A stretch of 64,000 nt of DNA. Source: Xylophilus ampelinus (GTDB lineage Bacteria > Pseudomonadota > Gammaproteobacteria > Burkholderiales > Burkholderiaceae_C). The notes beneath the pieces are model-generated. The model was given only the letters and a program-made list of their open reading frames with translations, had not been told where the DNA came from and did not search any database. A program made the translations under genes and the position numbers. Of the stretch, positions 33,528-46,710 are shown in pieces. Location of the stretch: contig NZ_CABFMN010000069.1 in NCBI RefSeq assembly GCF_901875635.1, positions 27,343 to 91,342 of the forward strand, read 5' to 3'. Position 1 is the first letter of the stretch, and the number at the start of each line of letters is the position of its first letter.

Positions 33528-34400
33528 TCATCGAGCCGCGTCGGCGCGTGCTTCCACGGCGATGTCGACGCGCCGGTTGGGTGCCAGGCATGCGATCAGC
33601 GCACCTCGGGCGCCGGGGCCGCACTGCACCACAGGCTGCGTCTCGCCGCGTCCACTGGCCACCACGCGCGACGGCGCGATGCCCTGGGCCACCAGGGCGC
33701 CGCGCACCGCCTCGGCGCGTTTCTCCGACAGGCGCTGGTTGTATGCGGGGCTGCCCAGCCGGTCGGCGTGGCCAACGACCTCGATGCGCTCGTAGCGCGT
33801 GCCTTCGAGTTGCGAAGCGAGCCGTGCGATCTCTCGGCGCCCCTCGGGCTGCAGGTCGATGTCGTCGAAGGCGAAGAGCGCATCGGCGGACAGGCGGAAC
33901 TGGCGAGCGGGCAGCGCGGAGCTCGCGACCGGCGGTGCGGTGTTCGTCGATGCCATGGCGATCATCGACGCGCAGCCTGCGGGCTGCCAGTGGAAGCTGC
34001 GGGCCAGGTAGTCCTTGTCGAAGATCACCTTGTACTGGCAGGTCGTCACACCGCCGCCGCTGCGGAAGTTGAAGACGTAGTCCCACTCGCGCACTGCGAA
34101 CAGCCCTTCGTGGAAATGCGGCCGGCCCAGCAGGTCGTAGAGCTGGTCCTTGGTCAGGCCTGCGCCCACTGCGCGCAGGTTGTCCAGGTTGGGGAAGGTG
34201 CCCTCGGGCTGTGTCGCGTCGCGGCCGATGTCGGGAAACACCACCTCGGCCGCGCGGCCGTCGTCGCCGATGCCGCGGCTGACGTAGGAGGTGCAACCGG
34301 CCGCCAGGGCCAGCGCGGCGCCGGCCGCGGTGACCAGCACCATGCGGCGCAGCTCGGCCCGGGGCCGGGCGCATGTCTGAGAGATGGAAATGGCGTTCAT
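33528..34400 (-). CDS. tpgA: BamE/OmpA-domain outer-membrane lipoprotein of the TpgA type (adhesin partner)
   Basis: Lipoprotein of 290 residues. The lipobox LAAGC gives a lipidated C36. A BamE/SmpA-like domain follows (about 70-130: GLTKDQLYDLLGRPHFHEG), then an OmpA C-terminal peptidoglycan-binding domain (about 165-285). The latter contains VVGHADRLGSPAYNQRLSEK and KRAEAVRGAL, with the Asp and Arg that contact diaminopimelate. TpgA of Acinetobacter Tol 5 has this same two-domain plan, lies directly downstream of the trimeric autotransporter AtaA, and forms a complex with it and peptidoglycan. Here the gene lies 50 bases downstream of a trimeric autotransporter on the same strand. GGGAG precedes the ATG. 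Symbol assigned by domain order and context, not by alignment. Confidence 0.82.
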   Translation of the reverse strand: MNAISISQTCARPRAELRRMVLVTAAGAALALAAGCTSYVSRGIGDDGRAAEVVFPDIGRDATQPEGTFPNLDNLRAVGAGLTKDQLYDLLGRPHFHEGLFAVREWDYVFNFRSGGGVTTCQYKVIFDKDYLARSFHWQPAGCASMIAMASTNTAPPVASSALPARQFRLSADALFAFDDIDLQPEGRREIARLASQLEGTRYERIEVVGHADRLGSPAYNQRLSEKRAEAVRGALVAQGIAPSRVVASGRGETQPVVQCGPGARGALIACLAPNRRVDIAVEARADAAR

Positions 34401-34450
34401 GCTTTGTGCTCCCTGGTCTTGTTGTCGTCCGATGTCGTCGTCAGCGGCGA

Positions 34451-37400
34451 TCACCACTGGAAACCCGCGCCAACCGAGACGCCCACGTCGCCGCGCGTGT
34501 TGGCGGAGCCGGTGATCTTGGTGACCCATTTGCCGTTGTCGGATATCTTCGACAGGCCGATGGCGATGGCCGTCTGGCCCTTGAAGCTCGCAGCGCCGGC
34601 TGCCAGCATGCTCTTGCCCGGCAGATAGGCCTGCGGCATTCCGGCCATGGCCATCGCGGCCGCCACACCGGCCTGGGCGTCCCTTCGGTTGTCGACCATC
34701 TCCTGACGCAGGGTATTGACGTTGTTGTTGACAGTGCCGAGTCCGGCGCTGAGCTGGTTGACGTTCACCGCGTCGGTGCCGTTGACGCCCGGCGCGACGT
34801 TGGTGATGGTCTGCCCGCCCGCGCTGATGCCGTTGACCGTCATGCTTGGCCCGTTGGCGATGCTCACGCCGTTGTTGGTGATGCTGGTGCCACCCACCGT
34901 CACGCTGGTGAAGTTCGGGTTGTCGTTGACCGCGAATGTCATGTTGGTGCCGTTCTGTGTGAGCACCACGTTGTTGCCCGCCGTGTACGTCGCCGTGCCT
35001 CCTGCACCCACGTTGGCCACGCTGGTGCCGATGGCAATGCCGGTGCCCGTTTGCGCGGTGGTCACGTTGATGCCGGCACCGGCCATGACCGACAGGTTGT
35101 TGATCGCCTGGTTGGTCGCGTACAGCTGGCTGCCGTTCACCGCGTCCGTGCTGCTGGCATTGAGCTGGCCGGCCGCCACGTTCGTCACCTGGCGCTCGCC
35201 GCCCACCGATCCGACGCTCACCACGCCGGTGGAGGTGCCGCCGGCGAAGGTGTAGCTCGTGCCCTGGATCGTCGTGCCGGTGGTGGAGGTCGTCGCGCCG
35301 GTGGTGCTGTTGGCGCCCAGAGCCACGCTGTTGCCCGTGGTGGCCGAGGCATTGGTGCCCATGGCCACCGAGTTGGCGGCGCTGGCCGAGGCGCCGATGC
35401 CCGAGGCGATGGCGCCCTGCGCCGTCGCGCCGTTGTTGGCGTAGTTGCCGTCGGTGTTGGTGCCGCCGTTGACGCTGTAGAAGTGCGTGTTGGCGTTGTT
35501 GACGATGTTCACGATCTGCCCGCCGATCGCGTTGACCTGGCTGGCCACCGAGTACAGCTGGCTGCCGTTGACGGCGTCGGTGCTGGTGGCCGTGATGGCG
35601 CCGGGTGCCACGTTGACGATCTGGCGCTCGGCGCCGACTGCACCGACGCTGACCACGCCCGACGCCGTGCCGGCGAAGCCGCTGTAGGTGACCAGGGGGC
35701 CGCTCGAATAGCTGGTGGTGCCGTCCGGGTTCAGGGTCGCCACGACGCTTGGGATCGAGGCGCTGGTCACTTGCACGGCCGCCTTGTCGGCGCTGTTGTT
35801 GCCCAGCACGACGGCGTTGGCCTGGGTGGTCGTGACACCGTTGCCGAGGACGAAAGTGTTGTCCTGAGCGATGGTGTTGTTGTTGCCGAAGGCGTAGCTG
35901 CCTGTGCCGCTGACGACGTTGGGGTCGCCGAAGGCGCCGGAGTTCTTTCCGCTGACCACGTTGCCCGTGCCGATGGCGATGCTGCTTTCACCCGTGGCCT
36001 GGGCACCGGTGCCCATGGCAATGGCATTGGTGGCGCCGGCCGTCGCCTGCGTCCCGAGGCCGATCGAATCCGTGCCGCTGGCCACTGCGCCGGTGACACC
36101 GGGGCCGGTGCCGATCGCCACGCTGCGAACACCGCTGGCGGCGCTGCGCGAACCCAGCGCGACGGCGCGATCGCCCTGCGCCGACGAGTTGCGCCCGGCT
36201 GCCAGCGCTTCAGAGCCGAAGGCAGAGGCGTTGGCGCCCAGAGCCGTCGCGGCAATGCCCTCTGCCCTGGCAGTCGAGCCTATCGCCACTGCACCGTCGC
36301 CCACCAGGGTGTGGGAGCCCAAGGCGGTCGAGGAGGCGGCAGCGGCGTTCGCCTGGTAGCCCAGGGACACCGAGTCCTGCCCGGCACTGGTCGCCGCGCC
36401 TACGGAGACGCCATAGGCATTGGTGGTCGACGCGCCCCATCCGACGGCGACGCCGCCGGTCGCGCCCGAAGCCACGGTGGCGCCTGTACCTGCCGCCACG
36501 GAGTTCGTTCCGCCCGCACTGCTTGCGCTCCCCACCGCCACGTCCCCTTCGAGGGCTGCCGATGCATCGCGGCCGATGGCGATGGCATTCACGCCGCTGG
36601 CTCCGAGGTTGTCCTCGTTGCCCCCGCCGGTCGAATTGACGCTGAAGTACTTGGTCTTGTTGGTCGTGATGGTCGTCGTCAGGTCGCCGATGGCCTGGTT
36701 GGTCGCATAGAGCTGGCTGCCGTTGACCGCGTCCGTGCTGGTCTGGCTGATCTCACCCGCCGCGACGTTGAGGACCTGGCGCTCTGCACCCTTGCTGCCG
36801 ACGCTTACCACGCCGTTCGCCGCCGAGCCCACGCCGGCGAAGGTGTAGGCCGTGCCGTTGATCGTCGTGCCCGCGACCGCGGTCGCGGCGCCGTCGGTCG
36901 ACGCGTTGCCCAGCACCACGCTGTTGGCCTGGGTGGTGGTCACGCCGTTGCCCAGCACGAAGGTGTTGTCCTGGGCGATGGTGTTGCCGCGCCCGACGCC
37001 TGCACTCGACGCGCCATTGACCTTCGTGTCGCCTCCCAAAGCGATCGCGTTGCTTGCGGTGCTGGTGGCCTGTCGTCCGATGGCGACGGACCCGGTCGTA
37101 GAAGTACCCGTTGTGCTGGCCCCGGTGCCGATGGCCACGCCGTTGATGTTGTCGGCTGTCGCGTCGCCAATGGCGATGCTGCCCGTGTTGAGGGCTGCGC
37201 TGCTGTAGCCCAGCGCCGTGGCGTTGGCGGCTGTTGCCTGCGCCTGGTAGCCGAGTGCCGTCGCGTAGTTCGCTCTGTTCGCGCTTGTACCGACCACCTT
37301 GGCGTTTGCGCCTACTGCAACCGCACCCTCCGCATACGCCACGTTCGCCAGAACGCCTTGAGCCACTGAAAAGCGAGAGTTCGCGTCGACTGCGGCGTCG

Positions 37401-40400
37401 CTGCCGAGCGCGACCGCCGCTTCGGACATGGCACGCGAATTCACACCGACAGCCGTGGAGTTCTGTCCACCCGCAGTTGTCGGATAGGAGGTAGAACTCG
37501 GGGCACTTGCTCCGATGGCAATGGCGCCGGATTTGGTGGCGCTGGCGCCAGCGCCGAGAGCCGTCGCACCGCTGCCAGACGCATTGGCGCCGATACCTGC
37601 CGCCAGTCCGTTGACGCCTGTGGCGCCCAGGTTGTCGTAGTTGGTGCCTGTGCCGGCGGCCCGGGGTGCGCCGGTATCGTTGACGCTGTAGTAGTGCGTG
37701 GTCGCCGCGGCCTGTGCCGCCTGAAGCTGCGCCACGTTCACCGCGTCGGTCGCAGTGCTGCCGGCGGCCACGCCGGTGATCTGGCGCGTGGCCGTGGCAG
37801 CCGAGCCAGCCGTGCCCGAACCCACGCTCACCGCCGCCAGCGTGCTGTTCCAGGCTGCGCCGGCGCGGATGGTCGATGTGCCTGTGAGCGGGTCGTACCC
37901 GGCTGCGCCGCTGGCCGTGTTGGCGGTGGAGTTGTAGCCCAGTGCCACGGCCCCGGCCTGGGTTGCGCTGGTCGAATTGCCCAAGGCCATGCTGTTCGTG
38001 CCGGTGGCCGTGGAAGTGTTGCCGAAGACGATGGCGCCTCCGGCTGACCCCGTCGACCGTGAGCCGATGACGTAGGCCGCGGTGCCGGTGGCTTGTGCAC
38101 CCACGCCCAGGGCGATCGCCTCTCCGGCAGTGGCGACGGCGGCATTGCCAGGCGCCTCATCGCTGCCGATGGCGATGGCGCCAGCGGCGGTCGCGCGTGA
38201 TCCGGCTCCGATGGCCGTGGCCCCGCCCCTGAAAGACGAAGCGCCGTTGTTGTCCGCCACGGCGTTGAGGCCGATGGCCAGCGTGGGACCCGCCAGCGCG
38301 GTATTGAGGGCCTTGGCGCCCGTGCCGATGGCAATGGCCTCCCGCCCCGAGGCAGTGGCATTCAGGCCGGCCGCCATCGCGTTGAATCCCGTGGCGCCCA
38401 GGTTGTCGAAGTTGGTGCCGGTGCCCGGCGCGCGGACCGCACCCGTGTCGTTGACGCTGAAGTAGTGCGTCGTTGCTGCGGCCTGCGCCGCCTGCAACTG
38501 CGCGACGTTGACCGCGTCGGTCGCAGTGCTGCCGGCGGCCACGCCGGTGATCTGGCGTGTGGCCGTAGCCGCCGAGCCGGCCGTGCCCGAACCGACGCTC
38601 ACCGCTGCCAACGTGCTGTTCCAGGCAGCACCGGTCCGGCTGGTCGACGTGCCGGTGAGCGGGTCGTAGCCGGCCACGCCAGTGCCTGTGTTAGCGAGGC
38701 TGCCCTGGCCCAGGGCGACGCCGCCCTGCTGGGTCACTCCGGAGTTGTTGCCCAGCGCCACGGCACCGCTGACATTGTTGTTGGGCACGCCGGTGCTGTC
38801 AGTGCCCAGGTAGACGTTGTTGCCCAGCGCGAAGGCGTTGGACGTGGCAGCGCTGATCTTGTTATTGTTGCCGACGCTGTAGCTGTCGGTGCCGTTGATG
38901 ATGGACGGGTCGCCGATGGCGCCTGAGCGGTCGCCGCTGACGATGTTGCCGGTGCCGATGCTGATGCTGCTCAACCCCAGCGCCTGTGTCTGCGAGCCAA
39001 TCGCGATGGCCTGCTGTCCTCCAGCCAGTGCCTGCGCGCCGACCGACGTGGAGCGAATGGCCGTGGCCTGTGCGCGCGCGCCGAGCGCCGTGCTGTACAG
39101 CTCCAGCGCCTTCGTGTCGGCTCCGATGGCAGTGGCAAGGTTGGAGCCTGTTGCCGTCGCCTGAGAGCCGATCGCGGTGCCGCCTGCGCCGGCATTGGCC
39201 ACGGATCCCATTGCGGTGCCTGATTGGCCCGCTGTCGATGCGACGCCGACGGACGCCGCGTAGTTGCCCGTATTGGTCGAGTTGTATCCCACCGCAAGCC
39301 CGGAGAAGTTCGCGGATGCGCCCGTTCCCACCGCCGTGGCGGTATATCCATTCGCCTTGGCTGCCTGCCCGATGGCAGTCGCGCTTTCCGACAGCGCCTG
39401 CGCCCCGTAGCCCACTGCAAGTCCATAGTTGTTGTTGGCCAGCGCATTGGCGCCGATGGCAATCCCGCCGTCGCTCACTGCCTTGGCCGAGGCGCCCACA
39501 GCCGTTCCGTTCGATCCCGTCGCCTGGGCGCGGCTCCCGAGGGCCACCGTGTTGGCCGCCTGGGATACCGCATAGCTTCCCAGTGCGACGGCATCGGGCG
39601 CGCCAGGCTGGATGTTGACCCCATAGCCGATGCCTACGGCGCGGTCGCTGTAAACGCGCGCGGCGTTGTACGGATCGGTCGCACCGCCGAGGGCGACGGC
39701 GTTCTGGCCTTCCGCTGCGGCAAAAGCGCCGACAGCCGTTGCACCTGCACCCGAAGTCCCCCCGGCACTGGCGCCGGCGCCGAGCGCGGTCGTGTAGTCC
39801 TTGTTCGCCTGCGTCGCGACGCCCAAGGCGGTGGCGCCCGTTCCCGCGGCCTGGGTCAAACGGCCGCCGTAGGTCAGGCCCTGGTTGCCGATGGCCACCG
39901 AATCGGTGCCGCTGGCTACGGCCTGTCCGCCGATGGCCGTCGAGTCGGCTCCCCAGGCGTTCGCGGCATTCCCGATCGCCAGGGTGTTGCCGCCGCCATT
40001 GGAGCCCGCAGCGCGGGCGTTGGCGCCGATCGCGATGCCGTCGCCGGTGTTGTTCTCGACACGCGCGTTGAGCCCGATGGCGATGTTGGCGGTGTTCGCA
40101 CCGCTGCCGCTGGTACCGCTCGTGGCGCCGTTGCCCAGGCTGATGCTGTTGTCGCCGATCGCTTGTGCTGCAGGTCCGATGGCAAGTGCCTTGGCGCCGG
40201 TTGCGAGCGTGGCAGTGCTGCCGAACGCGATTGCACCCGACCCGAGGTTCGTGCTCACCCAGGTGGACAAAGCCGTGGTGTCCGGAAATCCCCCGCTGTC
40301 GCTGGGTACGCCGCTCACGGTGGCAAAGCCGCCGCTGCCGTTGGGTACCTGGCACGTCCAGGAAGAGCTGGACGTCGAAGACTGATCGGCGGTGGTGCAG

Positions 40401-40600
40401 ATGGAGCCTGTGGCGCTGTCGAGAGACATGCCGGCGTGCGCAGGCCCGGAAGTCGCAAGCGCCGTCAGTACCAGCACCGCGGCCGCCAGGGCGCCGCGTC
40501 GTTTGGAGGAGGCGCGCTTGCCTCGCGCCGAAGTCAACTCGCTTGCCGCCACCCAGGCGCCCAGCGATTCGTTCCAGATACTCCGGTAGTTCGTGTTCAT
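34451..40600 (-). CDS. Trimeric autotransporter adhesin (YadA-like), 2049 residues
   Basis: Type Vc secreted surface adhesin. Residues 1-56 form an extended signal peptide (ESPR: MNTNYRSIWNESLGAWVAAS, cleaved after GPAHA). Head repeats of the YadA type (AIGxxAxAxGxxSxAxG) run from about residue 100 to 640. Stalk/neck units with TDAVNVAQLQAAQ or STDAVNGSQLYATNQ recur near residues 635-735, 890-990, 1258-1334, 1651-1734, 1794-1850 and 1924-1964, separated by more head repeats. The last 90 residues are the YadA anchor (KGQTAIAIGLSKISDNGKW) ending in aromatic GAGFQW. Twelve anchor strands per trimer are expected. The frame is intact despite strong internal repetition. It is divergent from a response regulator and followed by a TpgA-like gene. 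Confidence 0.95.
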   Translation of the reverse strand: MNTNYRSIWNESLGAWVAASELTSARGKRASSKRRGALAAAVLVLTALATSGPAHAGMSLDSATGSICTTADQSSTSSSSWTCQVPNGSGGFATVSGVPSDSGGFPDTTALSTWVSTNLGSGAIAFGSTATLATGAKALAIGPAAQAIGDNSISLGNGATSGTSGSGANTANIAIGLNARVENNTGDGIAIGANARAAGSNGGGNTLAIGNAANAWGADSTAIGGQAVASGTDSVAIGNQGLTYGGRLTQAAGTGATALGVATQANKDYTTALGAGASAGGTSGAGATAVGAFAAAEGQNAVALGGATDPYNAARVYSDRAVGIGYGVNIQPGAPDAVALGSYAVSQAANTVALGSRAQATGSNGTAVGASAKAVSDGGIAIGANALANNNYGLAVGYGAQALSESATAIGQAAKANGYTATAVGTGASANFSGLAVGYNSTNTGNYAASVGVASTAGQSGTAMGSVANAGAGGTAIGSQATATGSNLATAIGADTKALELYSTALGARAQATAIRSTSVGAQALAGGQQAIAIGSQTQALGLSSISIGTGNIVSGDRSGAIGDPSIINGTDSYSVGNNNKISAATSNAFALGNNVYLGTDSTGVPNNNVSGAVALGNNSGVTQQGGVALGQGSLANTGTGVAGYDPLTGTSTSRTGAAWNSTLAAVSVGSGTAGSAATATRQITGVAAGSTATDAVNVAQLQAAQAAATTHYFSVNDTGAVRAPGTGTNFDNLGATGFNAMAAGLNATASGREAIAIGTGAKALNTALAGPTLAIGLNAVADNNGASSFRGGATAIGAGSRATAAGAIAIGSDEAPGNAAVATAGEAIALGVGAQATGTAAYVIGSRSTGSAGGAIVFGNTSTATGTNSMALGNSTSATQAGAVALGYNSTANTASGAAGYDPLTGTSTIRAGAAWNSTLAAVSVGSGTAGSAATATRQITGVAAGSTATDAVNVAQLQAAQAAATTHYYSVNDTGAPRAAGTGTNYDNLGATGVNGLAAGIGANASGSGATALGAGASATKSGAIAIGASAPSSTSYPTTAGGQNSTAVGVNSRAMSEAAVALGSDAAVDANSRFSVAQGVLANVAYAEGAVAVGANAKVVGTSANRANYATALGYQAQATAANATALGYSSAALNTGSIAIGDATADNINGVAIGTGASTTGTSTTGSVAIGRQATSTASNAIALGGDTKVNGASSAGVGRGNTIAQDNTFVLGNGVTTTQANSVVLGNASTDGAATAVAGTTINGTAYTFAGVGSAANGVVSVGSKGAERQVLNVAAGEISQTSTDAVNGSQLYATNQAIGDLTTTITTNKTKYFSVNSTGGGNEDNLGASGVNAIAIGRDASAALEGDVAVGSASSAGGTNSVAAGTGATVASGATGGVAVGWGASTTNAYGVSVGAATSAGQDSVSLGYQANAAAASSTALGSHTLVGDGAVAIGSTARAEGIAATALGANASAFGSEALAAGRNSSAQGDRAVALGSRSAASGVRSVAIGTGPGVTGAVASGTDSIGLGTQATAGATNAIAMGTGAQATGESSIAIGTGNVVSGKNSGAFGDPNVVSGTGSYAFGNNNTIAQDNTFVLGNGVTTTQANAVVLGNNSADKAAVQVTSASIPSVVATLNPDGTTSYSSGPLVTYSGFAGTASGVVSVGAVGAERQIVNVAPGAITATSTDAVNGSQLYSVASQVNAIGGQIVNIVNNANTHFYSVNGGTNTDGNYANNGATAQGAIASGIGASASAANSVAMGTNASATTGNSVALGANSTTGATTSTTGTTIQGTSYTFAGGTSTGVVSVGSVGGERQVTNVAAGQLNASSTDAVNGSQLYATNQAINNLSVMAGAGINVTTAQTGTGIAIGTSVANVGAGGTATYTAGNNVVLTQNGTNMTFAVNDNPNFTSVTVGGTSITNNGVSIANGPSMTVNGISAGGQTITNVAPGVNGTDAVNVNQLSAGLGTVNNNVNTLRQEMVDNRRDAQAGVAAAMAMAGMPQAYLPGKSMLAAGAASFKGQTAIAIGLSKISDNGKWVTKITGSANTRGDVGVSVGAGFQW
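37628..38697 (-). repeat. Two near-identical ~300-base direct repeats inside the adhesin gene
   Basis: Segments 37628-37930 and 38397-38697 encode almost the same roughly 100 residues: GYDPLTGTSTxRxGAAWNST, then the neck VAAGSTATDAVNVAQLQAAQ, then HYxSVNDTG. They differ at scattered third positions and are about 770 bases apart in the same orientation. The copies could recombine and delete or duplicate the head block between them without changing frame. Confidence 0.85.
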
Positions 40601-40852
40601 TGTTCTCTCCCTGCTGCTGCCTCTGATTGCCGCCCGGCCAACGAGGTCTTTCGGTTAAGGATGGTGAAAGAATGTAATGAGCAAGTTATCTTTTTGCGCG
40701 TGACATGCCGTGCGGATTCAACATTTCGTCTGTAATTCGAATGGATTCCCGGACGATTCCGTGCACAAGTTGGCGGTTACAAAAGTCGAACGTTTGTTGA
40801 CATCCGTTGCCAAGCCTAGACTTCAACGCCACAAAGTCAGGGGGAAAACGGT
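40601..40852. promoter_or_regulatory. Divergent control region between adhesin and response regulator
   Basis: A 252-base gap that is visibly more A+T-rich than its surroundings, containing the promoters of both the adhesin and the five-gene sensor operon. A consensus -35 hexamer TTGACA is at 40797-40802, with TAGACT 14 bases further on (short spacing). AGGGGG precedes the regulator's ATG. No clear direct repeats for an OmpR-type regulator could be fixed by eye. This is the natural place for autoregulation and for control of the adhesin by the regulator. Confidence 0.55.
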
Positions 40853-41581
40853 ATGCGCATCGCCGCGCTCGACGATGAGCCGAGTCAGCTCGAACTGATC
40901 AGGCACACGATGGAAGGCCTCGGTCACGAGTGCCACGGATACGTGGAAGGCAAGGCCCTTCTGCGGGCTCTTCGCCAGGAAACATTCGACCTCCTGATCC
41001 TCGACTGGAGCCTGCCCGACATGACCGGGCCGGCGGTGGTCCGGTCCATCCGGGAGGAATTGCTCAACCGCATTCCCATCCTCTTCGTGACCAACCGGCG
41101 CGAGGAGGCCGACATGGTCGAGGGCCTGGGCGTGGGAGCCGACGACTTCATGCCCAAGCCCATCCGCGTGGGCGAGCTTTCGGCCCGCACGCAGGCCCTG
41201 CTGCGCCGCGCCTACCCGTCCCGGCACGAAACCGAAGTGGTGTTCGGGCCCTACCACTTCTTCCCGCACTCGCGCACGCTGCATGTCAACGGCGACCCGC
41301 TCGAGCTGAAACACCGCGAGTACGAACTCGCGCTGTTCCTGTTCCAGAACATGGGGCGGCTGCTCTCGCGTGAACACCTGCGCGAGGCGGTGTGGGGACA
41401 GGGGCCGGAGGCGCCGTCTCGCTCGCTTGACACCCACATCTCGCGGCTGCGCACCAAGCTCGACCTGCGGCCTGGCAACGGCTTCCTGCTGTCTGCCATC
41501 TATGGCCTGGGCTATCGGCTGGAGGCCATCGACGGCGACATGCTGAACACCCGGGCGGACGCCTTCACCGCCTCGCCATGA
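40853..41581 (+). CDS. OmpR-family response regulator
   Basis: DNA-binding response regulator of 242 residues. The receiver domain (1-115) has acidic pocket D7/D8, phospho-acceptor D51 (LLILDWSLPD), T80 and K102 (FMPKPIRV). The winged-helix domain (about 130-228) has LKHREYELALFLFQN, REHLREAVWG and the final SAIYGLGYRLE. It is the first gene of an operon divergent from the adhesin, and its stop overlaps the next start as ATGA. The cognate kinase is most likely the CHASE2 protein two genes downstream. The adhesin promoter is the obvious candidate target, by position only. Confidence 0.93.
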   Translation: MRIAALDDEPSQLELIRHTMEGLGHECHGYVEGKALLRALRQETFDLLILDWSLPDMTGPAVVRSIREELLNRIPILFVTNRREEADMVEGLGVGADDFMPKPIRVGELSARTQALLRRAYPSRHETEVVFGPYHFFPHSRTLHVNGDPLELKHREYELALFLFQNMGRLLSREHLREAVWGQGPEAPSRSLDTHISRLRTKLDLRPGNGFLLSAIYGLGYRLEAIDGDMLNTRADAFTASP

Positions 41582-43314
41582 GCGGCGCGCGCGCGCACGG
41601 CCCGCTGCCGCGGATGGCGGTCGTGTGCCTGCTGCTGGGGGCGGGCGTTGGCCCGGCCTGCGCGCAGGCCCGCGTGCCCGCAACCTCCGCCGCCGGCCAG
41701 GGCGGCTACATGACACATCAGGTCGTTGCGGGCGAGACGCTCGCCGTCATCGGCATGCGTCACCTGCGCGAGCCTCGCCAGTGGCGCCATTTGCAGCGAC
41801 TCAATCACATCGCCGATCCGGATGCGCTCCCACCGGGCCGCACGGTCCGGATTCCGGCGTGGATGCTCAAGCCGGCGGCGGTCGGCGCCCAGGTGGAGTT
41901 CGTGCGTGGCGAGGGCGTGGTCAGCCGGGCCGGCGGCGTCCAGCGGCCCGACGATGCGGCGCCCGTGCGGGTCGTCCCGGGTGCCCGCCTGACGGAGGGC
42001 GCGCGCATCCAGGTGCCCGAGAACGGCTACCTGCGCCTGCGCCTGGCCGATGGGTCGATCGTGCGAGTGCTGGCGGGGTCCGACGTCGAGCTCAAGCGCC
42101 TGCGCCGGCGCAACAACGCCGCCAGCTTCGAATCCGTCGTCGACGTCAAGAAGGGCAAGGTCGAGTCCGAGGTGTCCAGGCAGCCCGCGGGCCGGGTCTT
42201 CGAGATTCATGCGCCGGGCGCGGTGGCCAGCGTGCGCGGCACGCGCTTCGACGTTTCGGTTGCAGAGGACGGCCGGATGGGCGCTGCCGTGAGCGAGGGT
42301 GAGGTGGCGTTGCGCGCGCGGGCGGCTGCGCGGCGCGTCAAGATCCGCACTGCGCGCCTGGGGCCTGGCCAGGGCGCTGTGGTGGATGCGGGAGGCCAGC
42401 TCGGCAACCGCCGTGTGCTTCTGCCGGCGCCTGGACTCGACGCGCTTGCCGACATCTACGAAGACGCCGACGTCATGCGGCTCGACCTCGGCACCGCCAC
42501 GGGTGACTTCGAGGTCCGCATCGCGCGGGATTCCGCCTTCCAGGACGTGCTGCGCAACGGGGTGGCGCGCGGCGGGCGGATGGATCTGCCCACGCTTGAC
42601 GACGGCGTCTACACCGTAGGCGTGCGGGCGCTCGATGCCGACGGGCTGGCCGGCTCCGAGGCGCAGCGTCGGATCCGCGTGCATGCGCGCCCGGTGCCAC
42701 CGCTGTACCAATACCCGCCGCCGGGCGGCCGGGTGACGGCCGACGGCGTGCCACTGGTCTGCTCCGAGGTGGCCGATGTGGCCTGGGTGCACGTACAGGT
42801 GGCCAGCCGCGCCGATTTCACAGCACCCGAGATCGACGAGTCGCGGCTGCAACGCTGCCAGATCGGACTCGCGACGCTGGCGCCGGGCGACTACCACTGG
42901 CGCGTCGCCTCGGTGCGCGACGACGGCACGGCCGCGGGCGACCACGGTCCCTTCGCACGGGCGCAGCGGTTTTCCGTCGTGGCGACGCCACGGGTCGGTC
43001 AGGTCGAGGTCGTGGATGCGGGCGAGAGTCCCACGCTCCATTGGGCTGCGGCTCCTGGGCAGACCTTCCGGGGCCAGGTCGCCAGCGATCCGACGTTCCA
43101 GCGCATCGTTCACGAGATCGACCTGAAGCAGGCGCAATGGACGCTCGGCGGCTTGCCGCGCGGCCTGTACCACGTGCGCCTGCGCGCCCTCGATGCCGGC
43201 GGGCTGCCCGGTCCCTGGGCGCCGGCGCGGCGCGTGCAGGTAGGCGGCACACTGCAGAGTGGCAGCGGCGCCCGGGTGACCAGCAGCGACGGCGAACCGG
43301 TGTTGCGCCCCTGA
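41578..43314 (+). CDS. Periplasmic LysM-FecR domain protein
   Basis: Exported protein of 578 residues. A signal peptide (1-29, cleaved after GPACA) is followed by a LysM domain at about 44-97 (HQVVAGETLAVIGMRHLREP). A FecR domain at about 125-255 contains LRLADGSIVRVLAGSDVELK and APGAVASVRGTRFDVSVAE. The C-terminal half has three fibronectin-like segments, each with a strand pair such as GVYTVGVRALDADGLAG or GLYHVRLRALDAGGLPG. LysM suggests binding to peptidoglycan; FecR domains typically relay envelope signals. It lacks a transmembrane helix, so any contact with the kinase would be in the periplasm. Start and stop are tightly packed with its neighbours. Confidence 0.88.
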   Translation: MSGARAHGPLPRMAVVCLLLGAGVGPACAQARVPATSAAGQGGYMTHQVVAGETLAVIGMRHLREPRQWRHLQRLNHIADPDALPPGRTVRIPAWMLKPAAVGAQVEFVRGEGVVSRAGGVQRPDDAAPVRVVPGARLTEGARIQVPENGYLRLRLADGSIVRVLAGSDVELKRLRRRNNAASFESVVDVKKGKVESEVSRQPAGRVFEIHAPGAVASVRGTRFDVSVAEDGRMGAAVSEGEVALRARAAARRVKIRTARLGPGQGAVVDAGGQLGNRRVLLPAPGLDALADIYEDADVMRLDLGTATGDFEVRIARDSAFQDVLRNGVARGGRMDLPTLDDGVYTVGVRALDADGLAGSEAQRRIRVHARPVPPLYQYPPPGGRVTADGVPLVCSEVADVAWVHVQVASRADFTAPEIDESRLQRCQIGLATLAPGDYHWRVASVRDDGTAAGDHGPFARAQRFSVVATPRVGQVEVVDAGESPTLHWAAAPGQTFRGQVASDPTFQRIVHEIDLKQAQWTLGGLPRGLYHVRLRALDAGGLPGPWAPARRVQVGGTLQSGSGARVTSSDGEPVLRP

Positions 43315-43319
43315 TCCCG

Positions 43320-45755
43320 GTGGCTCAATCGCCCGATTCATCTCCTGCCGCGCCCGAGCCCACGGCCGCCCACGTCGCTGTTCCCGGTCCGCCGCAGGCC
43401 TGGCCCGAGCGGATGCGCCGGTTTTGGCGTCGCCGCGGTCCCTGGCTGCTGCTGTCCGCCGCCATGCTGGGCCTGACGGGCGTGCTCACGCTGCTGCAGG
43501 CCTTTCCGCGCGTGGACCGCATGCTGCAGGACAACGCCCGTGCCGCGATGGGCCAGCGCAGCACGGGCGATGTGGTGCTGGTCACCATCGACGACGCCTC
43601 GCTCGAGGCCGTGGGGCGCTGGCCCTGGCGCCGCGCGTTGCATGCCGAGGTGCTTCGCCGCATCGCGGCGCAGTCGCCGCGCTGCATCGGCCTGGACCTG
43701 CTGCTCACCGAGCAGGACGAGGACGACCGCGAGGACGATCTCGTGCTGGCCGAGGCGATGCGCGACAGTGGCTGCGTGGTGCTGCCGATGGCGCTCCAGT
43801 CCGCCGGTGGCCGGCCGCAGAAGGAGCTCGTGCCGGTGCCCGTGCTGGCCGCGGCGGCCGCGGGCATCGGCCATGCCCACATCTCGCTCGACCAGGACGG
43901 CGTGGCGCGCAGCGTCTACCTGACCGAGGGTTTCGAGGGGCGGCCCTGGCCCCACTTCGTGAAGGCGCTGTACGAGGCGGGAGAGGCCTGGGCCGGCGGT
44001 CGCGGCCTGCCCGCTCATCCGGCGCTGCCACCGCCGGCCGGTGCGCAGGGACCGTGGCAGCGCAGCGATCACGAGCTCGTCGTGTTCGCCTATGGTGACC
44101 TTCCGTTGGCCAGCGTCTCGTACATCGATGTACTGCGTGGCAAGGTGCCGCCCGGCCTGTTCCGCGACCGCTACGTGCTCGTGGGCACCACCGCCCTGGG
44201 GATGGGCGACGCGTACGCCACCGCAGCACCCAGCGCCACAGGGCTGACGGCCGGCATCCAGATCTTCGCCCACGTGCTGCAGGGCCTGATCGCCGACCGC
44301 CACGTGGTGACGGCCTCGCCCTGGCAGGACCTGGCCTTCAACTTGCTGCCGCTGATGGTCGTGTTGCTCGGCCTCCTGTGGCTGCGTCCTGCTGGTGTCC
44401 TGCTGCTGATCGTTGCCATGCTCGAACTGAGGCTGGGCCTGCATGTGCTCCGGCCTTGGGTGGGCGTGCAGTTCGCGCCCGCCGTGGGCTTCGTCGCCCT
44501 GTTGACGGTGTACCCGCTGTGGAGCTTGCTGCGCCTCACGGCGGCGCTTCGGTTCCTGCGTGCGGGCTCGGAGCAGCTCAATGCCGAGCTCGAAGGCTTC
44601 CCCGCGCCCAGGCTGCCCGATGCGAGCGGCGACTTCCTCGACCGCCAGATGGCCGCGACCACGGCCGCCGCCCTGCGCATGCGCGACCTGCACCGTTTCG
44701 TGCGCGACGGCATCAACCACCTGCCCGACGCCACGATGGTGCTGGACACGCAGGGTCGGGTGATGATCGCCAACCTCGCCGCGCTGCGGCACTGGCAGGC
44801 GGAGCAGGCGGGCCTGGCCGGACGCGATGCGCACGAGCTGCTGGCCGACGTGACACGCCGCGGCAAGGGCCTGCCGATGATGCCGCCCGACGCACTGCGC
44901 CAGAACCTGCAGCCCGTCATCGACGAGGGGGAGGACGCGCACGGGCGCGTGCTGCTGGTGCGCTGCGTGCCATTCTTCGACGCGGCCAACGCACATGCCG
45001 GCTGGCTCATCGCGCTGGTCGACATCACCCGCGTGCGACAGGCGCAGGGCCAGCGCGACGAGGCGCTGCGCTTCATTTCGCACGACATCCGCGAGCCGAG
45101 CGCTTCGATCCTCACCATCCTCGAGCTGGCGCGCTCCCGGCCCGAGCAGTTCACGCAGCGCGAACTGTTCGCACGCATCGAGCGCCATGCGCAGACCGGC
45201 CTGGAGCTGGCCGACGGCTTCGTGGGCCTGGCGCGCGCCGAGGCACAGCCCTTCCGGCCCGAGCCGCTCGACCTGGTGGCGCTGCTGCACCAGACCGCCG
45301 ACAACGCCTGGGCAGCCGCGCGCAAGCGCAAGGTGCGCGTGCTGATCGCCGCCGAGCCCGAAGAAGCCCTGTGCGTGGGCGACCGGGCCCTGATCACCCG
45401 CGCGCTGGGCAACGTGCTGAGCAACGCACTGAAGTATTCGCTGCCGGGCTGCGATGTGCACTGCGCTGTGGCCGAGCGGCCACGGCACTGGGCGTTGAGC
45501 GTGCGCGACCAGGGGCCGGGCATCGCGCCGGAGCTACAGTCGCAGCTGTTCCAGCCCTTCCACCGGCTGCACCGCGACACCCACCCCGAGGTGCACGGCG
45601 TCGGGCTGGGCCTGCTGCTGGTGCGCACCGTCGTGCAGCGCCACGGCGGCTCGGTCGAGATCGACAGTGCCGTCGACGCGGGCAGCACCGTGACCCTGGT
45701 GCTGCCCAAACCCACCGAGGCCGAACTGGCCGCCATGACCGCCGAACTCGAATGA
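43320..45755 (+). CDS. CHASE2-domain sensor histidine kinase
   Basis: Membrane histidine kinase of about 811 residues. One N-terminal helix (RGPWLLLSAAMLGLTGVLTL) is followed by a periplasmic CHASE2 domain (about 65-335: VVLVTIDDASLEAVGRWPW), three membrane helices (about 345-420), a PAS domain (about 465-585) and a HisKA domain with H588 (FISHDIREPSASILTILELA). The HATPase region follows (N box NVLSNALKYS, G1 VRDQGPGIA, G2 GVGLGLLLVR). Start chosen as GTG 43320, six bases after the upstream stop. It lacks a strong ribosome binding site and an ATG about 90 bases later (MRRFWRRRG) is possible. Operon partner of the regulator at 40853. Confidence 0.9.
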   Translation: MAQSPDSSPAAPEPTAAHVAVPGPPQAWPERMRRFWRRRGPWLLLSAAMLGLTGVLTLLQAFPRVDRMLQDNARAAMGQRSTGDVVLVTIDDASLEAVGRWPWRRALHAEVLRRIAAQSPRCIGLDLLLTEQDEDDREDDLVLAEAMRDSGCVVLPMALQSAGGRPQKELVPVPVLAAAAAGIGHAHISLDQDGVARSVYLTEGFEGRPWPHFVKALYEAGEAWAGGRGLPAHPALPPPAGAQGPWQRSDHELVVFAYGDLPLASVSYIDVLRGKVPPGLFRDRYVLVGTTALGMGDAYATAAPSATGLTAGIQIFAHVLQGLIADRHVVTASPWQDLAFNLLPLMVVLLGLLWLRPAGVLLLIVAMLELRLGLHVLRPWVGVQFAPAVGFVALLTVYPLWSLLRLTAALRFLRAGSEQLNAELEGFPAPRLPDASGDFLDRQMAATTAAALRMRDLHRFVRDGINHLPDATMVLDTQGRVMIANLAALRHWQAEQAGLAGRDAHELLADVTRRGKGLPMMPPDALRQNLQPVIDEGEDAHGRVLLVRCVPFFDAANAHAGWLIALVDITRVRQAQGQRDEALRFISHDIREPSASILTILELARSRPEQFTQRELFARIERHAQTGLELADGFVGLARAEAQPFRPEPLDLVALLHQTADNAWAAARKRKVRVLIAAEPEEALCVGDRALITRALGNVLSNALKYSLPGCDVHCAVAERPRHWALSVRDQGPGIAPELQSQLFQPFHRLHRDTHPEVHGVGLGLLLVRTVVQRHGGSVEIDSAVDAGSTVTLVLPKPTEAELAAMTAELE

Positions 45756-46207
45756 ACACCCCGATGAACTTCGCCCCGACCTGCAAACGCCTGTGGTGGG
45801 CTGCCGGCCTGCTGTTCGTGCTCGCCGGCGCCGCCCGGGCGCAGGACGTCGACGCCACCGCCATGATCCGCGGCGGCCTGGAGGTGATCCAGATGATCGA
45901 CGCCGGCAACACCGGCGAGCTGTGGGACGGCGCGGCCCCCGGCGCCAAGAAGCGCGTGACCCGGCCGGACTTCATCCGCCAGGTCACGCAGGCGCGCACG
46001 CCGCTGGGCACCCCGCAGCAGCGCACCTGGGTGGCCGTGAACCGGCAGGCCGTGAACAACGAAGACCCGGACCTGACGGGCCAGTACGTCAGCATCGAGT
46101 ACGAGACGCGCTTCGCCAACCGCACCAGCGGCAATGCGCGCGAGCTGATCTCCTTCCACCTCGACCGCGACGGCACGTGGCGCTTCAGCGGGTACGTGGT
46201 GCGATGA
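45752..46207 (+). CDS. Exported DUF4019-type protein
   Basis: A 151-residue protein with a signal peptide (about 1-30, ending GAARA before QD). The mature part follows the DUF4019 pattern: a helical stretch with Asp and Trp (IQMIDAGNTGELWDGAA), RxxFIRQVTQARTPLGTPQQR, and a final strand DGTWRFSGYVVR. Family function is unknown. It overlaps the kinase stop and the next start by four bases each (ATGA twice), so it is translated as part of the sensor operon. A periplasmic accessory role in sensing is inference. Confidence 0.75.
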   Translation: MNTPMNFAPTCKRLWWAAGLLFVLAGAARAQDVDATAMIRGGLEVIQMIDAGNTGELWDGAAPGAKKRVTRPDFIRQVTQARTPLGTPQQRTWVAVNRQAVNNEDPDLTGQYVSIEYETRFANRTSGNARELISFHLDRDGTWRFSGYVVR

Positions 46208-46710
46208 ACGCCGCGCCGCGCTGGCGGCCCAACGTCACCGTCGCCGCCATCATCGAGCGCGAGGGCCGCTACCTGCTGGTGGAGGAACACACCGACCACG
46301 GCCTCAAGCTCAACACGCCGGCCGGGCATCTGGACCCCGGCGAATCGCCGGCCGAGGGCTGCGCGCGCGAGGCGCTCGAAGAAACGGCCCACCACTTCAC
46401 GCCCACGGCGCTGGTCGGCGTGTACATGGCGCGCTTCGAGCGTTCCACGCCGGGCGACGCGGGCGACACCGACATCACCTATCTGCGCTTCGCGTTCGCC
46501 GGCGAGCTGGGCGACCAGGAGCCGGGGCGCGCGCTCGACGAGGGCATCGTGCGCACGCTGTGGATGACGCCCGACGAGATCCGCGCCAGCACCGCGCGCC
46601 ACCGCAGCCCGCTGCTGCTGCAGTGCGTGGAAGACCACCTGGCGGGCCAGCGCTACCCGCTCGATCTCTTCCACGTCGATGCGTCGGTCGGGTTACTACA
46701 AAAAAGATAG
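46204..46710 (+). CDS. NUDIX hydrolase (NudJ-like)
   Basis: A 168-residue NUDIX protein with box GHLDPGESPAEGCAREALEE followed by TAH. The usual final Gly-hydrophobic pair is replaced by Ala-His, as is common in this betaproteobacterial subgroup. Related E. coli NudJ hydrolyses thiamine pyrophosphates and nucleotides, but the substrate here is uncertain. Last gene of the five-gene operon (ATGA overlap with DUF4019). Its final residues (about LLQKR) and stop codon lie inside an intergenic repeat (copy 5), so the original C-terminus may have been altered by that repeat. Confidence 0.87.
   Translation: MNAAPRWRPNVTVAAIIEREGRYLLVEEHTDHGLKLNTPAGHLDPGESPAEGCAREALEETAHHFTPTALVGVYMARFERSTPGDAGDTDITYLRFAFAGELGDQEPGRALDEGIVRTLWMTPDEIRASTARHRSPLLLQCVEDHLAGQRYPLDLFHVDASVGLLQKR

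What the first reader, a model, noticed from the sequence alone, without database searches (positions are those of the whole stretch)
33528..46710. Adhesin locus with a dedicated two-component module: trimeric autotransporter and TpgA-like anchor divergent from regulator, LysM-FecR, CHASE2 kinase, DUF4019
Seen: a 2049-residue trimeric autotransporter with a BamE/OmpA lipoprotein gene 50 bases downstream, and on the other side of a 252-base divergent region five genes coupled by ATGA overlaps or a 5-base gap. Known: TpgA has the same BamE-OmpA plan and ties AtaA to peptidoglycan in Acinetobacter; Burkholderia adhesin clusters also carry OmpA-family and two-component genes (from memory). Inference: the LysM-FecR protein and the TpgA-like protein both bind peptidoglycan, so the system could sense the loading or tension of the adhesin at the cell wall and tune its expression. 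I know of no described pathway with this component set.
Basis: partly seen in the sequence, partly recalled or inferred. Interest (0 to 1): 0.75.

Follow-up and report, generated by a model that had tools for sequence, protein, structure and literature searches.

The report
Sensor operon tied to surface adhesins
A known type of bacterial biofilm-sensing gene set sits back to back with a giant sticky surface protein and its probable cell-wall anchor, and comparison with related genomes suggests that branches of this sensor family have become partners of such surface proteins.

Summary
In detail: a trimeric autotransporter adhesin (TAA) and a TpgA-like BamE-OmpA lipoprotein on the minus strand, 252 bp, then RR, LysM-FecR, CHASE2-PAS kinase, DUF4019 and Nudix genes, in a Xenophilus-like comamonad. 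The component set is not undescribed: RR-LysM/FecR-CHASE2 kinase is the 'BiofilmReg' operon of Burkholderia (PMC5192318), where an insertion in the RR gene abolished biofilm. New is the adhesin link. Of 73 ordinary LysM-FecR loci read, none has a TAA or TpgA. In one FecR subclade (Xenophilus, Variovorax) 22 of 25 loci have TAA and/or TpgA, divergent or colinear; two more face a two-partner adhesin locus with a fused OmpA domain. The window's own subclade is looser: TAA in 5 of 16 loci, and in three syntenic relatives the cassette is cleanly absent while the kinase stays. Seen from the adhesin, pairing is a minority: 19 of 49 Variovorax TpgA genes lie within 15 kb of such a kinase. FecR is dispensable: four TAA-TpgA loci have RR and CHASE2 kinase without it. 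DUF4019 (predicted NTF2-like) is in 22 of 80 named TpgA loci, 20 of them without this operon. Most likely a surface/envelope two-component system controlling the adjacent adhesin; load sensing is untested.

The parts
33528..34400 (-). TpgA-like lipoprotein (lipobox Cys by eye, BamE domain, OmpA domain)
   Evidence: Pfam BamE 59.5 and OmpA 78.2 bits; NCBIfam TpgA NF047726 167 bits, below its 350 cut-off; alignment A2 of 8 relatives with invariant D213 and R228 in the OmpA domain (their role in peptidoglycan binding is recalled)
34451..40600 (-). trimeric autotransporter adhesin, 2049 aa: ESPR, YadA head repeats, stalks, YadA anchor
40601..40852 (.). 252-bp divergent region
40672..40682 (+). ATGTAATGAGC, adhesin-side element, also at -177 to -183 in L040, L243, L244
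   Evidence: 4 of 15 loci by a pattern picked by eye; once in the window
40768..40781 (+). AGTTGGCGGTTACA, tandem GTT element 85 bp before the RR start; candidate operator of the RR operon
   Evidence: within 3 mismatches of a consensus picked by eye, at -84 to -96 in 12 of 15 type I loci; 0.8% of single-base shuffles have a hit
40853..41581 (+). OmpR/PhoB-type response regulator, Asp51
41578..43314 (+). LysM-FecR protein with signal-peptide-like start and C-terminal FnIII/Ig-like domains
   Evidence: Pfam; AlphaFold2 model mean pLDDT 85.8; Foldseek: human fibronectin FnIII fragment 6xay E 9.5e-9
43320..45755 (+). CHASE2-PAS sensor histidine kinase, His588
45752..46207 (+). DUF4019 protein with signal-peptide-like start; NTF2-like fold predicted
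46204..46710 (+). Nudix hydrolase, found at this site with mnmA in type I relatives; probably not part of the adhesin system

Best explanation
The locus joins two units. (1) A peptidoglycan-anchored adhesin cassette: TAA, a TpgA-like lipoprotein that probably holds the TAA barrel to the cell wall, and probably the DUF4019 protein as a periplasmic helper. (2) A BiofilmReg-type two-component operon. Most likely the CHASE2 kinase, aided by a LysM-FecR rod on the cell wall, reads a surface or envelope state, and the regulator, bound in the 252-bp divergent region, sets transcription of its own operon and of the adhesin. Shown here: gene content, order, domains, recurrence of the pairing, clean absence of the cassette in some relatives, and a conserved element before the regulator gene. 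Inferred: promoter control, the signal, and all protein contacts.
For: BiofilmReg precedent: an insertion in the regulator gene abolishes biofilm (PMC5192318, parts 1-3 of 6 and passages read). Pairing: type II/III FecR loci 22 of 25 with TAA and/or TpgA and 2 of 25 with a two-partner adhesin locus with an OmpA domain, against 0 of 73 ordinary FecR loci. FecR tree of 98 rows: 5 label changes, 22.4 in shuffles, 0 of 500 as low. Variovorax CHASE2 kinases: 19 of the 20 best of 45 places (E <= 1e-124, limit chosen afterwards; 6 of the 20 were rows of the query alignment) are beside TAA and/or TpgA or the two-partner locus. From the adhesin side 19 of 49 Variovorax TpgA places are within 15 kb of one of the 45 kinase places, about 0.35% expected each. 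Divergent and colinear orders both occur. Type I locus with TAA in the window, G013, G014, G006 and the Variovorax MAG L174. Element before the regulator in 12 of 15 type I loci.
Against: In the window's own subclade 11 of 16 loci have no TAA yet keep RR; 10 of the 11 keep the kinase and 8 keep FecR, so the operon must have other work or act in trans. The conserved element is also in loci without TAA, so it speaks for autoregulation, not for adhesin control. The sigma-70 scan found no promoter. Most TAA-TpgA loci lack the sensor: 3 of 80 named loci have a CHASE2 hit over 100 bits, and 30 of 49 Variovorax TpgA places have none within 15 kb. Loci within the two genera are related, so counts are not independent events. 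DUF4019 also occurs away from adhesins (L185-L192).
Confidence: 0.52

Rival explanations
1. Bystander: an ordinary BiofilmReg operon with other targets; the adhesin cassette is a labile neighbour that it does not regulate.
For: 0 of 73 ordinary loci have TAA; no TAA in 11 of 16 type I loci, with clean absence between the same flanks in G001, G010 and G015; FecR relatives are widespread (80 of 199 relatives; 160 of 399 family genomes); 77 of 80 named TpgA loci have no CHASE2 hit over 100 bits.
Against: A related subclade has TAA and/or TpgA in 22 of 25 loci in several gene orders, and the kinase is beside the adhesin even where FecR is not found or the adhesin is of another class.
Confidence: 0.23
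2. One reading: LysM-FecR and TpgA, both on peptidoglycan, report loading or tension of the adhesin to the CHASE2 kinase.
For: Both carry predicted peptidoglycan-binding domains; FecR is modelled as an all-beta string of domains; in L249 the module faces a two-partner adhesin with an OmpA domain like TpgA's; G001, G005 and G003 lack both TAA and FecR at the type I site.
Against: L252, L253, L254 and L259 pair TAA-TpgA with RR and CHASE2 kinase, no FecR found; FecR is kept in 8 of 11 type I loci without TAA; no contact was modelled.
Confidence: 0.13
3. DUF4019 is a modulator of the kinase rather than an adhesin helper.
For: Its start overlaps the kinase end, and it is present in 13 of 15 type I relatives, most of them without TAA.
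Against: 20 of the 22 named TpgA loci with DUF4019 have no such operon in the stretch; it is next to TAAs in L180-L184; 0 of 73 ordinary sensor loci have it.
Confidence: 0.15

Closest known systems
BiofilmReg operon of Burkholderia contaminans and other Burkholderiales (Voronina et al. 2016, PMC5192318)
   Same: RR, then LysM-FecR, then CHASE2-PAS kinase in one operon, RR/FecR overlap, short FecR-kinase gap
   Different: Fourth gene there is DUF4136 (in Burkholderia), here DUF4019 then Nudix; the words adhesin and autotransporter do not occur in its main text; it reports no orthologs in Comamonadaceae (two genomes listed), where many are found here
AtaA-TpgA of Acinetobacter (NCBIfam NF047726; abstract start of PMC13082670, otherwise recalled)
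   Same: TAA followed by a BamE-OmpA protein
   Different: Below the TpgA equivalog cut-off (167 of 350 bits); here with DUF4019 and a divergent two-component operon
SadBA of Salmonella (PMC3953254, passages read)
   Same: Small periplasmic protein encoded with a TAA
   Different: SadB is a trimeric inner-membrane lipoprotein likened to MATH domains; DUF4019 is predicted NTF2-like, without a lipobox in the window copy (by eye); its helper role is only inferred
LysM/FecR protein plus CHASE2 kinase pair of Pseudomonas aeruginosa PAO1 (per PMC5192318)
   Same: FecR protein beside a CHASE2 kinase
   Different: Two genes only, without the RR; not examined here

Membership tests
BiofilmReg operon family | Gene order RR - LysM/FecR - CHASE2 kinase, same strand, tightly spaced | tested here: met
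BiofilmReg operon family | Common ancestry of FecR with that of the Burkholderia operon | tested here: inconclusive
   Window FecR nests among FecR proteins of Burkholderiales genomes, but no named Burkholderia row was in the trees
BiofilmReg operon family | RR of CreB type | tested here: inconclusive
   PhoB 146 bits and CreB 139 bits, both below cut-off
BiofilmReg operon family | Fourth gene DUF4136 (Burkholderia; the paper takes three genes as ancestral) | tested here: not met
   Fourth gene is DUF4019
BiofilmReg operon family | Needed for biofilm | not testable with these tools
   Experiment
Trimeric autotransporter adhesin (type Vc) | ESPR, head, stalk, YadA anchor at the C-terminus | tested here: met
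TpgA | BamE plus OmpA domains, encoded next to a TAA | tested here: met
   79 of 80 named relatives also have a TAA in the stretch
TpgA | NCBIfam equivalog cut-off NF047726 | tested here: not met
   167 of 350 bits; hence TpgA-like
NTF2-like fold (DUF4019 protein) | Structural match to NTF2-like chains | tested here: met

The most novel reading that the evidence does not exclude
A subfamily of CHASE2 two-component systems is dedicated to peptidoglycan-anchored type V adhesins: it goes with the adhesin whether this is a TAA with separate TpgA or a two-partner adhesin with a fused OmpA domain, senses the state of that adhesin at the cell wall and adjusts its production, with DUF4019 as a new periplasmic biogenesis factor of TAA-TpgA cassettes.
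Probability: 0.23. Interest if true: 0.78.

Novelty: new variant of a known kind. Interest (0 to 1): 0.56.

Why it matters
How bacteria time the display of giant surface fibres is largely open, and few dedicated regulators or helpers of TAAs are known (recalled; the SadB paper calls SadB the first specific export factor). If right, this gives a CHASE2 domain, whose signal PMC5192318 calls unknown, a testable signal; it links a BiofilmReg-type system to concrete adhesin targets; and it gives the uncharacterised DUF4019 family a role to test.

Tried and rejected
'New component set' was rejected on finding BiofilmReg. DUF4019 as a core sensor part was set aside: 0 of 73 ordinary sensor loci have it. 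FecR as an obligate part of adhesin pairing was rejected by L252-L254 and L259. Whether both adhesin-linked FecR clades share one origin was not tested (no AU test was run; the trees are 'quick' and FastTree). A sigma-70 scan of the divergent region found nothing. An exact pattern gave 7 of 15, hence the mismatch count; both patterns were picked by eye from the same sequences. DUF4019 against PDB sequences gave only chance-level matches. Paper searches showed no report of this link in the open library: FecR with TAA (4 papers listed, none opened), TAA with OmpA, two-component, Burkholderia and histidine kinase (1 listed), Variovorax with TAA (1 listed), BCAL1443 (only PMC5192318), DUF4019 (one Salmonella paper, passages read). 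Subscription papers are not covered.

Known gaps. The 73 ordinary loci were chosen by FecR, not by a complete operon: 67 have a CHASE2 hit over 40 bits and 39 an RR hit over 120 bits; several are short because the contig ends. Weaker hits were not read, and the 19 further loci skip two ranks (G382, G256). PF03895 scored at most 30 candidates per genome and missed at least one TAA seen later (L097). TAA was called by thresholds (anchor profile over 25 bits or whole-TAA match over 60). Tree: L042, L094, L100, L102, L169 and L227 were left out, and pieces under 200 aa. L094 and L042 are near-copies of L093 and L041 but count as loci. L040 and L219 end inside the TAA; in L250 the two-partner adhesin ORF is in pieces, and only that of L249 went to Pfam. 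Among 80 named TpgA loci a FecR hit over 100 bits is in L100, L102, L174 and L169 (Rhodanobacter); the last was not followed.

Full report
What is there. The coupled run is RR, LysM-FecR, CHASE2-PAS kinase, DUF4019, Nudix; the adhesin side is TAA then TpgA-like. The window has 69.7% G+C. Its own assembly is not held; the nearest held genome shares 25% of sampled words. Relatives place it in or near Xenophilus: contigs of G005 and G006 have the lengths of those of Xenophilus sp. Marseille-Q4582 and X. azovorans DSM 13620, and that of G014 matches Comamonadaceae bacterium ALPHA2B; a FecR of 83% identity is from X. aerolatus.

The sensor operon is a known kind. A paper search for CHASE2 with FecR found Voronina et al. 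2016 (PMC5192318; parts 1-3 of 6 and passages read). They describe RR - LysM/FecR - CHASE2 kinase - DUF4136 in Burkholderia contaminans; an insertion in the RR gene, which by their account stops the whole operon, abolished biofilm. The words adhesin and autotransporter do not occur in the main text, and no Comamonadaceae orthologs were found in the two genomes they list. Here FecR relatives occur in 80 of 199 relatives of the window at E <= 0.001 and, with a profile of a divergent subclade, in 160 of 399 family genomes at E <= 1e-25.

Is the adhesin link real? Sixty loci of up to 20 kb were fetched, 59 around FecR hits and one around the G001 kinase, and annotated with window proteins and home-made profiles. 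FecR trees place the adhesin-linked proteins in two clades (59 rows, 98 rows). Ordinary loci: 73 read in all, 0 with TAA, 0 with TpgA over 100 bits, 0 with DUF4019 over 40 bits; 67 of the 73 have a CHASE2 hit and 39 an RR hit, so not all are full operons. Type II/III clade: seven first loci in Xenophilus (one a near-copy), all with TAA and/or TpgA. A profile of six of these FecRs found, in 399 family genomes, one strong hit outside the genus, G307; that locus has kinase-FecR-RR divergent from TAA-TpgA, while 19 further loci from the next ranks have none. In 61 genomes of the genus of G307 the profile hit 18 at E <= 1e-60. In total 25 type II/III loci were read: 22 have TAA and/or TpgA (19 with a TAA by threshold, L095 and L230 with TpgA, L229 with a TAA N-terminal part), L234 and L235 face a two-partner system, and L226 has none in its stretch. 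Three hits in other families of the order (L236-L238) have none. The label 'TAA/TpgA' needs 5 changes on the tree of 98 rows against 22.4 in shuffles, 0 of 500 as low; near relatives inflate this.

Gene orders differ: divergent (for example L091-L094, L199, L220, L222, L223, L231-L233), colinear TAA-TpgA-RR-FecR-kinase (L096, L097, L221), and a module between two cassettes (L224, L225). In L249 and L250 (extended L235 and L234) RR-FecR is divergent from a ShlB-type transporter and a two-partner adhesin; in L249 this is one ORF of 2717 aa with ESPR, TPS domain and a C-terminal OmpA domain that the TpgA profile matches, and a CHASE2 kinase lies beyond it; in L250 the adhesin ORF is in pieces. 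In L252, L253, L254 and L259, TAA-TpgA is divergent from RR and CHASE2 kinase with no FecR found. A CHASE2 profile in the same 61 genomes gave 45 places. Of the 20 with E <= 1e-124, a limit chosen afterwards, 19 are beside TAA and/or TpgA or the two-partner locus; the exception is L226, about 18 kb from a TpgA. Six of the 20 were rows of the profile. Of the other 25 rows, two are pieces of one kinase beside a TAA (L233), 10 were read and have no TAA, 13 were not read. From the adhesin side, 19 of 49 full-length TpgA places (E <= 1e-80) are within 15 kb of one of the 45 kinases, against about 0.35% each by chance; 30 are not. In the 80 named TpgA loci nearest to the window's, across Burkholderiales, Lysobacterales and others, only 3 have a CHASE2 hit over 100 bits (L100, L102, L174). 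So the kinase branch depends on the adhesin more than the adhesin on the kinase.

The window's own subclade (type I) is less strict. Sixteen loci including the window were read: TAA in 5 (window, L040, L043, L044, L174), not in 11. The TpgA-TAA block (window about 33.4-40.8 kb) is missing between the same flanks in G001 (236 bp in its place) and in the near-identical G010 and G015 (about 0.7 kb). Its presence at this place in G006 and L174, the two most distant members, suggests loss rather than gain, without a formal test. FecR is absent in G001, G005 and G003; in G001 a short ORF remains at the FecR start, and in G003 a kinase end remains between RR and DUF4019, so these two are losses. Six Variovorax type I loci have no TAA, two of them with a BamE-only lipoprotein divergent from RR (L243, L244). 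So here the sensor persists without the cassette. This is the strongest point against a dedicated load sensor at this locus, and suggests further targets.

FecR protein and regulation. The FecR model (48 rows, mean pLDDT 85.8) shows a LysM part, a FecR beta region and, by secondary structure, three further beta domains; Foldseek matches are fibronectin-III and Ig strings. This fits a string of domains on the cell wall. In the divergent region an element AGTTGaCaGTTaCa lies 84-96 bp before the RR start in 12 of 15 type I loci within 3 mismatches, also where TAA is absent; an adhesin-side ATGTAATNAGC is in 4 of 15. Both patterns were picked by eye. They suggest autoregulation of the operon; control of the adhesin is inferred.

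Verdict. Ordinary in parts list, new in pairing: a known biofilm-sensor kind of which two branches are tied, one tightly and one loosely, to peptidoglycan-anchored type V adhesins, plus a new candidate adhesin partner, DUF4019.

Noticed in passing
L249:7271-15421, L249:15425-17410 (Variovorax genus): Two-partner secretion adhesin of 2717 aa with ESPR and TPS domains and a fused C-terminal OmpA domain of TpgA type, next to a ShlB-type transporter and near a CHASE2 kinase: a type Vb adhesin that may carry its own cell-wall anchor.
   Followed up: partly
L243:8010-8588, L244:12064-12540: BamE-only relatives of TpgA, lipobox by eye, where no TAA is present, divergent from the sensor operon.
   Followed up: partly
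L039 (G001), L193 (G003): Decay of the sensor operon: FecR lost in one, FecR and most of the kinase lost in the other, RR and DUF4019 kept in both.
   Followed up: partly
window:14382-19823: One ORF of 1813 aa joins a 4-alpha-glucanotransferase (MalQ) to a second alpha-amylase-family part, beside isoamylase, GlgE and maltokinase-type genes.
   Followed up: no
L224, L225: Sensor module flanked by two TAA-TpgA cassettes.
   Followed up: no
L169 (Rhodanobacter): A FecR protein and a kinase on the far side of a TAA-TpgA locus, outside the two genera studied.
   Followed up: no
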